A stretch of 64,000 bases of DNA, taken from NCBI RefSeq assembly GCF_001418015.1, contig NZ_LIQG01000026.1, positions 310,001-374,000 of the forward strand. Direction: 5' to 3'. Positions 45,386 to 49,853 of the stretch are shown here, in pieces. The translations under genes and the position numbers were made by a program. Position 1 is the stretch's first letter. Every line of letters begins with the position of its first letter. Below the pieces are notes generated by a model. That model was not told the origin of the DNA. It was given only the letters and a program-made list of their open reading frames with translations, and did not search any database. Source of the stretch: Lacinutrix mariniflava (GTDB taxonomy: Bacteria; Bacteroidota; Bacteroidia; Flavobacteriales; Flavobacteriaceae).

Positions 45386-45580
45386 GCTATACTATGTTTT
45401 TAAGGTTAAAGAATTCTCATCTAATGTTCTACTAAGAAAATATAATGAGTTTGTGGCGCAAAGGTATTGATTTATCTTAAAAAAGCAAGAGGTTCAAGAT
45501 TCGGAAATAAGTTTAGGATAATTAAACCTTAGAAAATAAATTTCAGCTCCACTTATTTATTTTGATTTTTAAACAAAAAA

Positions 45581-45605
45581 AGTCCTTTGCGCTCTGCAAA
45601 GGACT
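45581..45605 (-). terminator. Terminator of the orphan peptide gene
   Basis: AGTCCTTTGC pairs with GCAAAGGACT around a 5-base loop. On the minus strand a run of seven T follows, while the plus side is not T-rich enough to be sure. It lies 55 bases after the peptide stop and 196 bases before trhO starts, so it isolates the peptide gene. Confidence 0.8.
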
Positions 45606-45659
45606 TTTAATAGACTAACTCGTTATTAATTTTTTTTATTTCTAAAAAAAACAAACGAG

Positions 45660-45752
45660 CTAACCTCCATCGGCTTTACAGCTACTGTTTACTAAAACAG
45701 ATACTGAAACACCTAATGCATTTGATGTTAATACTTTTTTTAAATATTTCAT
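45660..45752 (-). CDS. Orphan 30-residue peptide, possible lipopeptide precursor
   Basis: The ORF opens MKYLKKVLTSNALGV, continues with a moderately hydrophobic core and ends NSSCKADGG. It has its own terminator and a -7-like box (TAATTTTT, minus strand 45773-45766), and nothing else lies in this 547-base gap. The basic-then-hydrophobic-then-Cys plan looks like a lipoprotein signal peptide with a six-residue mature part (C-K-A-D-G-G), although Asn at lipobox -3 is atypical. No modification enzyme lies next to it. Function unknown. Confidence 0.5.
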   Translation of the reverse strand: MKYLKKVLTSNALGVSVSVLVNSSCKADGG

Positions 45753-45932
45753 GTTACTACACTTTAAAAATTAGACATGAACTCTTAAAAAATGCGGTTA
45801 ATTTTTCTTTTTCATAGCTAAAACTTTCCCACCTTTATTACTAGATGCAAAAATGTTTAAAAGGTTGCGTTGGAAATTAAAAAAAAGATTAAAAAGTAGT
45901 ATTTTAGCATGAATTAAAGAAAAAAACAGACT

Positions 45933-46999: not shown

Positions 47000-47075
47000 T
47001 TGTTTTTAGACGCAACCTTTTATAAACTTTTGCATCTACCTTTAAATACACGTTTTAAGTTACAGAGTAAAAAAA

Positions 47076-47483
47076 ATGAAAAAAGCACTTATTTTATTAG
47101 TTGGTTTAATATTGTTTTCTTGTAGTTCAAATGATGATTCTCTTTATAACTACCAAGACCCAATGCCTATTGAGCTAGTAGATTTACCCGAAGAATTTAT
47201 TTTAAATGAAGAATATGAAATTACTATTACATACTTAAAACCGACAACGTGCCATGTTTTTAATGATATTTTATACCAAGAGGATAATAATATTAGTACG
47301 GTTATTGTAATAGGAACAGTTTTTCAAAATAATGGAAATTGTACAGATTTAAACACAGAATCTCAAGCTAGCTTTAACTTTACAGCGAATAATATCGGTT
47401 CTTATATTTTTAAATTTTGGAAAGGACTAGATGACAACGGAGAGGATATTTATTTAATTGTAGAAGTTCCAGTAGTAAACTAA
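47076..47483 (+). CDS. Small lipoprotein upstream of sigma factor
   Basis: A 135-residue lipoprotein: signal peptide ending LFSCSSNDDS (lipobox Cys, acidic surface-export type). The mature part is a single beta-sandwich-like domain (LNEEYEITITYLKPTTCHVF, ASFNFTANNIGSYIFKFW) with two more Cys. No family recognised. It lies 25 bases before the ECF sigma factor in the same direction, so it may be part of that regulon or unit, but this is only suggested by spacing. Confidence 0.75.
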   Translation: MKKALILLVGLILFSCSSNDDSLYNYQDPMPIELVDLPEEFILNEEYEITITYLKPTTCHVFNDILYQEDNNISTVIVIGTVFQNNGNCTDLNTESQASFNFTANNIGSYIFKFWKGLDDNGEDIYLIVEVPVVN

Positions 47484-47508: not shown

Positions 47509-48054
47509 TTGAGTTTAGACCAACTCATACATAATTGTAAGATTAATGATACTAAAGCACAAGGCGAATTATATAAACTCTTTTCGAGTAAATTATTTTC
47601 TTTATGCTTGAAGTATTCACGAAACTATGCTGAAGCAGAAGATAATTTGCAAGATGCATTTGTTACTATTTTTAAAAAAATAGAACAGTATAAAAATAAA
47701 GGTTCTTTTGAAGGCTGGCTAAAACGAATTACCATAAATACTGCATTACAATGCTACAGAACGCAAGGCGTTTTTGATATTGTAAACGAACATTTAATTG
47801 AGGATGATTCTATTACAGTAGAAGATGAAGATGATATTTCTATAGATTATCTATTGCAAATCATTCAAGAACTGCCAGATCGTTATCGTCTAGTTTTTAA
47901 CCTATATGTTTTAGACGGTTATTCTCACAAAGATGTTGCAGATTTACTTAAAATAACAATAGGAACTTCAAAATCTAATCTTGCAAGGGCTAGACAGATA
48001 TTAAAAGATAAAATAACAGAATATAAAACGGGATTAAATTCTCAATCTTTATAA
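47509..48054 (+). CDS. ECF RNA polymerase sigma factor
   Basis: A 181-residue group 4 sigma factor. Region 2 is RNYAEAEDNLQDAFVTIFKK, region 4 LPDRYRLVFNLYVLDGYSHKDVADLL. The start is TTG, since the frame is closed by a TAA 19 bases upstream and there is no earlier Met. The gene product probably recognises its own promoter. It is followed with a one-base overlap by a membrane anti-sigma-like gene, so sigma and regulator are co-translated. Confidence 0.92.
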   Translation: MSLDQLIHNCKINDTKAQGELYKLFSSKLFSLCLKYSRNYAEAEDNLQDAFVTIFKKIEQYKNKGSFEGWLKRITINTALQCYRTQGVFDIVNEHLIEDDSITVEDEDDISIDYLLQIIQELPDRYRLVFNLYVLDGYSHKDVADLLKITIGTSKSNLARARQILKDKITEYKTGLNSQSL

Positions 48055-49745
48055 TGAGCGATAAAAAACACATAGACAGGCTTTTTCAGGAAAAATTCAA
48101 GGATTTTGAAGCCAAGCCACAGGCTAATGTTTGGGATGGGATTCAAAGCAAAATGGAACATCCAAAAGAAAAAACTAAAACCGTTTTACCTTTCTGGCTG
48201 CGCTTCGCAAGTATAGCAGCTGCATTATTTTTATTACTCGCCATTGGGAATTTATTTCTTGATGATGAAGGAACCGAAAACAAAACTATTATTGTAAAAG
48301 GTAAGACAGATACTAAACGTGAGCATATTAATTCTAATACAGAAAAAAATATAACAACTAATCTCTCAACTGAAAGTCAAAACTCTTCTGAAGATACTAA
48401 TAATAACCTTATAGAAAATGAATCTATAGACGCCGCAACTATTGTAACAAATGATTCAGAAAGAAATACCGTTTTAGAGACAGTTAAAAAGAAAGCTAGT
48501 AACCTAAAATCTAATTCACCACACCAAAAAGGCGAATTAAAAGAAAATGAGAATAACACCAACATCTCTTTAGCTAAAAACACTAATACAAATAACATTA
48601 ATAGCAAGTCTAGTACCGTTAGTGCAAATTCAGAAAAAGACAATGTTTTAAGTGCATCTAATAATTTGCAGAGGTATGCGCAAAGTAACTCTGTAGATAA
48701 AACAAAAACTAATGCTACTAATAATGGAAAATCAGATAAAACTGCCAACACCAACAATAATGAATCAAGCAATTCAGTAAGTAGCAAAAACTTTAATAAT
48801 AAGAATAATATTATAAATAACACCTTAAATAAAACAAACATTAAAGCAGATAACGTTTTAGACAATAATAACAAGTCTTCGGATGCAGTTGCTGCAACAA
48901 CAAATAGTGAAAAGGAAAAAGAAGAAGAAAAACTGATGGAACAAGACAGCGCAAACTCGTCTAATACCATCGAAGAGACTCTTGCCAAGAATGAAGATCT
49001 TGATGAGAAGGAAGAAGAGAAAGTAAACAGGTGGTCGTTAAGTGCAAATGCTGCACCTGTTTATTATAACACTCTTGGCAAAGGTTCTCACATTGACGAT
49101 CAATTTATTGACAACCCTAAGAATGGAGAAATTAACACTAGTTATGGTATTAATGTTGGCTATATTTTAAGTGATAAATTAAAAATTCGTTCAGGAATTA
49201 ATAAATTAAATTTAAGCTATGATACCGCAAATGTAATTGTCTATGAAAATGTAGCAAATACACCTAGTAGCTCTCCTTTACGTACTATTAATTTCACCCC
49301 AAATAGCCAAGGTCAAAATATTTCTGTTTTAAGCACAAATAGCTTAGCAGTTCAGCAAATTAGCAGTGTTATTAACGATAATTTAAATGCTGCACTAAGT
49401 CAACGATTAAGCTATTTAGAAGTGCCTTTAGAGCTTGAATATGCAGTTGTTAGGAATCGCTTTGAATTAAACTTAATTAGCGGCTTTAGCACCTTCTTTT
49501 TAAATGATAACGAAGTTGTAACAGAAGTAGAGGATAGAAAAACAAAAATTGGAGAGGCTAATAATGTAAATAATATAAGCTTTAGTGCAAATGCAGGGAT
49601 AGGTATAGGTTATAAATTTAGCAATGCTATTAAATTTAATTTAGAACCAACTTTTAAATACCAAATTAATGCCTACAGCGAAACCTCGGGTAATTTTAAA
49701 CCATATATTATTGGTGTGTATACTGGTATTAGCTACAAATTTTAA
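48054..49745 (+). CDS. Candidate dual-membrane-spanning anti-sigma factor
   Basis: A 563-residue protein with three parts. N-terminal cytosolic segment (1-47) with FKDFEAKPQANVWDGIQSKM, typical of Bacteroidota anti-sigma regions. One inner-membrane helix (48-69; FASIAAALFLLLAIGNLF). A low-complexity Asn/Ser/Lys/Glu-rich linker of about 250 residues. A C-terminal outer-membrane beta-barrel domain (about 326-563) ending GISYKF with the final Phe signature. The layout would join inner and outer membranes, like the dual membrane-spanning anti-sigma factors described in Bacteroides thetaiotaomicron. Coupled to the sigma gene. Confidence 0.85.
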   Translation: MSDKKHIDRLFQEKFKDFEAKPQANVWDGIQSKMEHPKEKTKTVLPFWLRFASIAAALFLLLAIGNLFLDDEGTENKTIIVKGKTDTKREHINSNTEKNITTNLSTESQNSSEDTNNNLIENESIDAATIVTNDSERNTVLETVKKKASNLKSNSPHQKGELKENENNTNISLAKNTNTNNINSKSSTVSANSEKDNVLSASNNLQRYAQSNSVDKTKTNATNNGKSDKTANTNNNESSNSVSSKNFNNKNNIINNTLNKTNIKADNVLDNNNKSSDAVAATTNSEKEKEEEKLMEQDSANSSNTIEETLAKNEDLDEKEEEKVNRWSLSANAAPVYYNTLGKGSHIDDQFIDNPKNGEINTSYGINVGYILSDKLKIRSGINKLNLSYDTANVIVYENVANTPSSSPLRTINFTPNSQGQNISVLSTNSLAVQQISSVINDNLNAALSQRLSYLEVPLELEYAVVRNRFELNLISGFSTFFLNDNEVVTEVEDRKTKIGEANNVNNISFSANAGIGIGYKFSNAIKFNLEPTFKYQINAYSETSGNFKPYIIGVYTGISYKF

Positions 49746-49820
49746 GTTAAGTTAAGTTGTTTAGTTGGTTGGCTAGAGTTACATAGTATCTTATTGAAAT
49801 GAGAGTCCAATAATTATTTA

Positions 49821-49853
49821 AAAGCTACTCTGTGCCAAGAGTGGCTTTTTTTT
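49821..49853 (+). terminator. Terminator after sigma/anti-sigma genes
   Basis: AAGCTACTCT pairs with AGAGTGGCTT (one T-G wobble) around GTGCCA, followed by eight T. Ends the plus-strand unit. Confidence 0.78.

What the first reader, a model, noticed from the sequence alone, without database searches (positions are those of the whole stretch)
47509..49745. ECF sigma factor with anti-sigma protein joining both membranes
One protein contains a cytosolic anti-sigma-like segment, one inner-membrane helix, about 250 residues of Asn/Ser/Lys-rich linker long enough to cross the periplasm, and an outer-membrane barrel ending in Phe. This matches the recently described dual-membrane anti-sigma type in Bacteroides, where loss changes vesicle formation. 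Finding it in a marine flavobacterium-like genome extends the type and gives a direct outer-membrane-to-sigma signal path.
Basis: partly seen in the sequence, partly recalled or inferred. Interest (0 to 1): 0.75.

Follow-up and report, generated by a model that had tools for sequence, protein, structure and literature searches.

The report
Two-membrane anti-sigma operon in Flavobacteriaceae
A protein that appears to stretch from the cell interior to the outer membrane, holding a gene switch on a long flexible tether, is common in a large family of mostly marine bacteria and comes with a readable promoter code for genes it probably controls.

Summary
An ECF sigma gene (47509-48054) overlaps a 563-residue protein with two short N-terminal helices, one membrane helix (47-69), a 257-residue disordered linker and an 8-stranded OmpA-like barrel ending in Phe. 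This is the Dma/Reo anti-sigma architecture already described in Bacteroides and Phocaeicola: a new member of a known kind. It is not rare either: 125 of 149 sampled genomes of its family have a match.

New here is what surrounds it. In the 93 loci examined it follows an ECF sigma gene and, in 76, a small lipoprotein, beside recA. In 91 of 92 a fixed-spacing promoter (GCAACC-N14-N[CT][AG]TCT) precedes the operon. A strict form of this motif occurs in 94 of 126 sampled genomes with the protein and in 0 of 23 without it. A second copy across recA starts a short transcript with its own terminator, which in many species encodes a 30-residue peptide ending CKADGG. Further copies precede mostly lipoproteins and, in some genera, an acyltransferase and acyl-ACP desaturase.

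Best reading: an outer-membrane sensor restraining an autoregulated envelope sigma factor. Sigma binding, release, signal and any vesicle effect are inferred.

The parts
47010..47038 (+). ECF-type promoter of the operon, ACGCAACC-TTT...GCATCTA
   Evidence: Exact match. GCAACC-N14-N[CT][AG]TCT lies between recA and sigma in 91 of 92 loci; base shuffles average 0.08 of 92 (largest 1), reversed sequence 0, reverse complement 0.
47076..47483 (+). small lipoprotein, first gene of the operon; beta-sandwich fold predicted
   Evidence: Homologue between recA and sigma in 76 of 93 loci. Columns C16 (lipobox), C59 and G117 invariant, C89 over 90%. AlphaFold pLDDT 91.3. No PDB match at E 0.001 or better; weak chance-level Pfam and NCBIfam hits only.
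47509..48054 (+). ECF sigma factor
   Evidence: Pfam sigma regions 2 and 4; NCBIfam TIGR02937 over its cut-off. Aligned start codon TTG 65, GTG 18, ATG 2 of the 85 loci scored out of 93.
48054..48191 (+). Dma residues 1-46: cytosolic anti-sigma-like segment, helices 7-14 and 24-34
   Evidence: AlphaFold (pLDDT 62-76 per ten-residue block); W27 invariant and K5, D8, F11, P22, I30, L34, P46 at least 90% in 93 rows.
48192..48260 (+). Dma residues 47-69: single inner-membrane helix
   Evidence: AlphaFold helix; mean hydropathy 2.34 over residues 51-69.
48261..49031 (+). Dma residues 70-326: disordered linker, 257 aa
   Evidence: pLDDT mostly under 55 to residue 305, short helix 306-314. In 93 homologues length 140-327, median 203, no second membrane helix by hydropathy.
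49032..49742 (+). Dma residues 327-563: OmpA-like 8-stranded outer-membrane barrel ending in Phe
   Evidence: Barrel length 229-247 in 93 homologues.
49820..49849 (+). intrinsic terminator after the operon
   Evidence: 12-pair stem followed by a T run (6 terminator-like sites in the stretch against 2.0, sd 1.4, in shuffles).
45842..45870 (-). second copy of the promoter, on the other side of recA, pointing away from it
   Evidence: Exact match. In this position in 48 of 66 recA-trhO intergenic regions and in the expected orientation in 67 of 80 named loci.
45660..45752 (-). 30-residue micropeptide ORF, MKYLKKVLTSNALGVSVSVLVNSSCKADGG
   Evidence: Read. DGG-ending peptide in 24 of 66 regions (21 with and 3 without the promoter) and 35 of 80 named loci. 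Codon-position entropies 0.65, 0.53, 1.01 and crude pN/pS 0.47 over 43 unique 30-mers.
45578..45608 (-). terminator between the micropeptide and trhO
   Evidence: 13-pair stem and T run.

Best explanation
This is a Dma-type (Reo-type) anti-sigma factor with its own ECF sigma factor, in an autoregulated operon with a lipoprotein. At rest the short cytosolic helices hold sigma at the inner membrane, and the disordered linker crosses the periplasm to a barrel seated in the outer membrane. When the outer membrane or barrel assembly is disturbed, the barrel end is lost or altered, the anti-sigma segment is inactivated (by loss of tethering or by stepwise proteolysis ending at an RseP-type site-2 protease) and sigma is released. 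Sigma then transcribes its own operon, a short terminated transcript beside recA that often encodes a 30-residue peptide, and a small envelope regulon: lipoproteins, outer-membrane proteins and, in some genera, phospholipid enzymes. Shown here by computation: gene order, domain anatomy, barrel fold, promoter conservation and its co-occurrence with the protein. Inferred: sigma binding, insertion in both membranes at once, signal, release step, that this sigma reads these promoters, and any effect on vesicles.
For: Anatomy. Sigma gene beside it on the same strand in 93 of 93 loci examined, gap between -8 and +5 nt in 67 of 93. Autoregulatory promoter in 91 of 92 loci. Strict motif in 94 of 126 genomes with the protein and 0 of 23 without, Fisher p 3e-12. 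Of 40 other motif sites in 20 genomes, 32 have an ORF within 150 nt and 17 of these 32 carry a lipobox against 8 of 510 neighbouring genes. Acyltransferase PF01553 (7e-20) and FA_desaturase_2 PF03405 (3.2e-141) behind one such site. An RseP-family gene is in the genome. Published relatives: inactivating the P. vulgatus anti-sigma turns its sigma regulon on and the pair is induced by a membrane-active toxin (PMC9308784 passages); ecfO-reo were among the most induced genes with the toxin or with Bd-A (PMC13114119 passages), and bacteroidetocin A is described as inhibiting BamA.
Against: No experiment on this protein. Pfam shows no anti-sigma domain and the N-terminal model is of modest confidence. 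The genome has 15 other ECF sigma factors in the tree, and a different one might read the motif. With one mismatch allowed the motif is hardly above its reversed control in the own genome (37 against 29), so the regulon may be very small. 32 of the 126 genomes with the protein lack the strict motif. Most Dma-negative genomes are small (18 of 23 under 2.5 Mb), which confounds the co-occurrence. Site-1 protease not sought; RseP is near-universal.
Confidence: 0.72

Rival explanations
1. The barrel is a receptor for an outside ligand, such as a glycan, and ligand binding rather than membrane damage releases sigma. The Dma2 authors propose this for their protein.
For: PMC13088901 discussion hypothesises glycan sensing for Dma2. 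Barrel loops are long in the model (residues 399-445).
Against: The locus lies beside recA rather than in a glycan-use cluster in the loci examined; barrel length is nearly constant, 229-247; predicted targets are lipoproteins and envelope genes.
Confidence: 0.15
2. The protein is normally cut in two: a free outer-membrane barrel and a conventional one-helix anti-sigma factor, so that nothing joins the membranes in the resting state.
For: The linker is long, disordered and unconserved, hence protease-prone. Related sigma factors in the same genome sit beside short (186-254 aa) one-helix anti-sigma proteins with no room for a barrel.
Against: 93 of 93 loci keep one reading frame joining both parts, with linkers of at least 140 residues, which two unlinked products would not need.
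Confidence: 0.15
3. The conserved GCAACC promoter is read by another ECF sigma factor, so the downstream genes say nothing about this sigma factor.
For: Several own ECF sigma factors exist. The F. [quoted passage not shown]
Against: The motif precedes this operon in 91 of 92 loci and is absent from 23 of 23 sampled genomes without the protein.
Confidence: 0.2
4. The protein is a structural outer-membrane anchor placed beside a sigma gene by chance, not an anti-sigma factor.
For: No Pfam anti-sigma domain.
Against: Sigma neighbour in 93 of 93 loci; relatives in other families of the phylum also beside a sigma gene; published anti-sigma function of the same architecture.
Confidence: 0.03

Closest known systems
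Dma family (Dma1, Dma2, Dma3), Bacteroides thetaiotaomicron
   Same: N-terminal sigma-binding segment, one membrane helix, disordered tether, C-terminal barrel, neighbouring ECF sigma gene (PMC13088901 passages).
   Different: Here in a recA-lipoprotein-sigma-Dma order in Flavobacteriaceae, with a GCAACC-N14-YATCT promoter and a CKADGG micropeptide transcript. Not compared residue by residue with Dma1-3: the 2024 PNAS paper is not held and their sequences were not fetched.
EcfO-Reo, Bacteroides fragilis and Phocaeicola vulgatus
   Same: Anti-sigma said to span all five compartments and thought to sense outer-membrane stress; regulon of surface lipoproteins (NigD) (PMC13114119 passages).
   Different: The lipoprotein here is not NigD by Pfam. 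The genomes with a nigD-adjacent sigma-Dma pair that I found (L311, L312) lack the GCAACC motif in the 700 nt upstream of sigma.
SM6 promoter group, Flavobacterium psychrophilum
   Same: Listed genes include a YceA (rhodanese-related) gene and an ECF sigma/anti-sigma pair, the two neighbours of the sites here; also a regulatory RNA and T9SS genes (PMC9723704 passages).
   Different: -10 box described as CGT, here mostly CAT. I could not check that THC0290_1774/1773 are the orthologues of this pair.
RpoE-RseA of Escherichia coli (recalled)
   Same: Envelope-responsive, autoregulated ECF sigma factor with a one-helix membrane anti-sigma factor.
   Different: RseA has no linker to the outer membrane and no barrel; in E. 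coli DegS senses unassembled porins separately.

Membership tests
Dma family | single protein with N-terminal cytosolic segment and one membrane helix | tested here: met
Dma family | long intrinsically disordered tether | tested here: met
   257 aa in the window protein, pLDDT mostly under 55 to residue 305; 140-327 aa in 93 homologues.
Dma family | C-terminal outer-membrane beta-barrel | tested here: met
   PF13568 1.4e-7; 8 strands; OmpA match 2.9e-9; strand alternation.
Dma family | encoded next to an ECF sigma gene | tested here: met
   93 of 93 loci examined.
Dma family | the neighbouring sigma factor belongs to group ECF21 | tested here: inconclusive
   No ECF21 model was available.
Dma family | sequence homology to Bacteroidales members at both ends | tested here: met
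   Profiles from this family match the nigD-adjacent proteins of L311 and L312 at the N-terminus (i-Evalue 1.7e-4, 1.7e-5) and barrel (4.5e-6, 8.6e-7), in a set of about 20 sequences only. That these are Reo orthologues is inferred from the nigD neighbour.
Dma family | inhibits its sigma factor; loss changes vesicle output | not testable with these tools
   Needs experiment.
NigD-like lipoproteins (for the upstream gene) | NigD_N domain PF12667 | tested here: not met
   No match for 47076-47480 in Pfam and none in the own genome.

The most novel reading that the evidence does not exclude
The anti-sigma factor is itself a client of the barrel-assembly machinery, so sigma activity reads out outer-membrane assembly directly: if the barrel is not inserted, the tethered anti-sigma is destroyed and sigma is freed. 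Its output in Flavobacteriaceae is a compact regulon with one promoter code: the lipoprotein operon, a short recA-side transcript with a CKADGG micropeptide (or a regulatory RNA where the peptide has decayed), other envelope lipoproteins, and in some genera acyl-chain remodelling enzymes.
Probability: 0.3. Interest if true: 0.78.

Novelty: new member of a known kind. Interest (0 to 1): 0.52.

Why it matters
If right, a large environmental family has one recA-linked outer-membrane stress circuit whose promoter can be read from sequence. That makes Dma function testable outside gut Bacteroides in genetically workable flavobacteria, offers a candidate counterpart of RpoE for a phylum that assembles its outer membrane differently, and supplies concrete targets to assay, including an undescribed micropeptide and a conserved lipoprotein.

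Tried and rejected
Rejected: that the type is rare in this family. Rejected: that the divergent promoter mainly serves trhO. A terminator lies between in the window and short ORFs or terminators follow the motif in relatives; read-through is not excluded. Rejected: L319 and L320 as Dma proteins; their N-termini looked acidic and disordered with no sigma domain.

Led nowhere: Rfam (8 hits up to E 1, all under the gathering score); Pfam and NCBIfam for two versions of the micropeptide (0 hits); the lipoprotein fold in the PDB (0 hits at E 0.001); a paper search for CKADGG (0). The GCAACC motif was absent from the 700 nt upstream of sigma in 10 of 10 loci outside the family, and present in 3 of 7 loci of one large unnamed genus of the family. 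In one of the other four (G127) it lies further up, 29 nt before a lipoprotein.

Limits: 93 loci were examined of 125 genomes with a match; the rest were not fetched. The motif was first written from the window sequence and memory, then tested on the same loci; the 80 named loci overlap the unnamed set in part (the same contigs recur), so they are not an independent sample. E-values refer to about 20 sequences. The lipobox test is nominal, as orthologous sites recur across genera and the lipobox rule is my own.

Full report
Observation. The sigma factor has Pfam regions 2 and 4. The second protein has one Pfam match, an outer-membrane barrel at residues 350-531. From 93 homologues, AlphaFold gives two short N-terminal helices, a helix at 47-69, coil to 305, a short helix, and a barrel of 8 long strands from 327 to 562, the barrel mostly above pLDDT 90 while the whole-protein mean is 68.8. 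Foldseek ranks OmpA first in the PDB (E 2.9e-9, TM 0.65 on the target). The sequence of the strands alternates as a membrane barrel should. The linker is 257 residues; 93 homologues range from 140 to 327 with median 203, rich in N, E, K, T and S, with no second membrane helix by hydropathy. A worm-like-chain estimate gives a contour length of about 92 nm for the window protein and 50 nm for the shortest, so crossing 20-30 nm is possible for all of them; the periplasm width and chain parameters are recalled.

Distribution. 125 of 149 genomes sampled from the family have a match to the window protein. A profile search added one, G127, whose 641-residue protein sits behind a sigma gene. Among the other 23 genomes the profile found nothing in 20 and only matches covering the N-terminal half of the profile in 3, mostly in frames of 230-310 residues; 18 of the 23 are under 2.5 Mb (sizes). 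In a sample of 296 genomes of the phylum 74 match the profile, but many of those are N-terminal-only matches to short proteins. Relatives with a barrel match beside a sigma gene occur in other families (L311, L312, L314-L318, L321-L323).

Locus. I examined 93 loci. A sigma gene stands beside the protein on the same strand in 93 of 93, recA upstream in 92 (the stretch of the 93rd, L016, is too short to tell), a lipoprotein homologue in between in 76. Sigma and the anti-sigma gene are separated by -8 to +5 nt in 67 of 93. The aligned sigma start codon is TTG in 65, GTG in 18 and ATG in 2 of the 85 that could be scored.

Promoter. Upstream of the operon, 91 of 92 loci carry GCAACC-N14-N[CT][AG]TCT; the exception (L090) has one base less in the spacer. 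Base shuffles average 0.08 of 92, the reversed and reverse-complemented sequences give 0. The spacer varies freely. A strict form (ACGCAACCNTTN12YATCTA) was sought in the 149 genomes: 94 have it, with 0 matches to the reversed pattern in all 149. All 94 have the protein (G127 included), so 94 of 126 against 0 of 23 (Fisher p 3e-12). Against a large regulon: allowing one mismatch in the shorter pattern gives 37 matches in the own genome against 29 for the reversed pattern.

Second transcript. The own genome has five strict sites. One lies on the other side of recA, at 45842-45870 on the minus strand. Behind it are a 30-codon ORF and a 13-pair terminator, before trhO. The site is present in 48 of 66 recA-trhO regions and 67 of 80 named loci. 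A DGG-ending peptide is present in 24 of 66 (3 of them without the promoter) and 35 of 80. Codon-position entropy (0.65, 0.53, 1.01) and crude pN/pS 0.47 indicate that it is translated. In several Winogradskyella and Algibacter-like loci the ORF is cut short while promoter and terminator-like hairpin remain (read by eye), so an RNA role is possible too.

Other sites. I took 40 further sites from 20 genomes in the order of a capped list, after leaving out operon and trhO-side sites; one G029 site was left out for lack of room, and one (L362) turned out to be trhO-side. Of the 40, 32 have an ORF of 50 residues or more starting within 150 nt; 17 of the 32 pass a lipobox rule of mine against 8 of 510 genes in neighbouring stretches. 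In four genomes a small lipoprotein is followed by an acyltransferase-like gene (L294, L297, L351, L360), and in three of these a desaturase-like gene is listed next; Pfam was run on the L297 pair only (Acyltransferase 7e-20, FA_desaturase_2 3.2e-141). In the own genome the sites precede a 492-residue secreted-type protein followed by two lipoproteins, a 1134-residue secreted-type protein, and a lipoprotein followed by a barrel-like protein (no Pfam hit) and an OmpA-domain protein (5.2e-31).

Known relatives. The Dma2 paper (abstract, introduction and opening results, discussion, reference list in part and passages seen) gives the same four-part anatomy, an adjacent ECF21 sigma gene, and more vesicles on deletion through the sigma factor. 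Two Phocaeicola papers (passages) describe Reo spanning all compartments, induction by a toxin and by Bd-A, and a NigD lipoprotein output. The F. psychrophilum transcriptome paper (passages) lists a YceA gene and a sigma/anti-sigma pair under one ECF-type motif. A Nature paper on F. johnsoniae BAM (passages) contains no occurrence of 'sigma' in its text. The 2024 PNAS paper that named Dma1 is not held. Searches for a description of the flavobacterial system listed none; the library covers open-licence papers only.

Mechanism. Shown by computation: anatomy, gene order, promoter conservation and its co-occurrence with the protein. Inferred: that this sigma factor reads the motif; that the N-terminal helices bind it; that the barrel sits in the outer membrane while the helix sits in the inner one; that disturbed barrel assembly is the signal; that a site-2 protease (an RseP-family gene is present) takes part. 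The sigma tree groups all 27 Dma-associated sigma factors with only 3 of 15 other own ECF sigma factors, at modest support (86/79), and those 3 lie beside short one-helix anti-sigma proteins; the barrel was therefore probably gained or lost within one sigma lineage.

Verdict. A real dual-membrane anti-sigma factor by architecture, new as a member and not as a kind. The conserved promoter, the recA-side micropeptide transcript and the lipoprotein-rich candidate regulon are what a specialist would find new.

Noticed in passing
45660-45752 (-): 30-residue peptide ending CKADGG behind the second promoter, with no Pfam or NCBIfam match (two versions tried) and no held paper containing CKADGG.
   Followed up: partly
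47076-47483 (+): Conserved lipoprotein with two further conserved cysteines (C59 invariant, C89 over 90% in 76 rows); beta-sandwich without a PDB match at E 0.001.
   Followed up: partly
47509 (+): The sigma gene keeps a non-ATG start (TTG or GTG) in 83 of the 85 loci scored, which may hold its translation low.
   Followed up: partly
L294, L297, L351, L360: Small lipoprotein plus acyltransferase-like gene (in three followed by a desaturase-like gene) behind the same promoter in four genomes, suggesting acyl-chain remodelling.
   Followed up: partly
L296, L300, L304, L353, L359, L361: Six sites lie 0.4-2.6 kb upstream of a gene starting MKAFKYILFLLL or similar; in four of them the intervening 2.3-2.6 kb shows no obvious target ORF on that strand. 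Not identified.
   Followed up: no
48377-48988 (-): 203-aa reverse-strand ORF over the low-complexity linker; a by-product of its codon bias, not a gene candidate.
   Followed up: no
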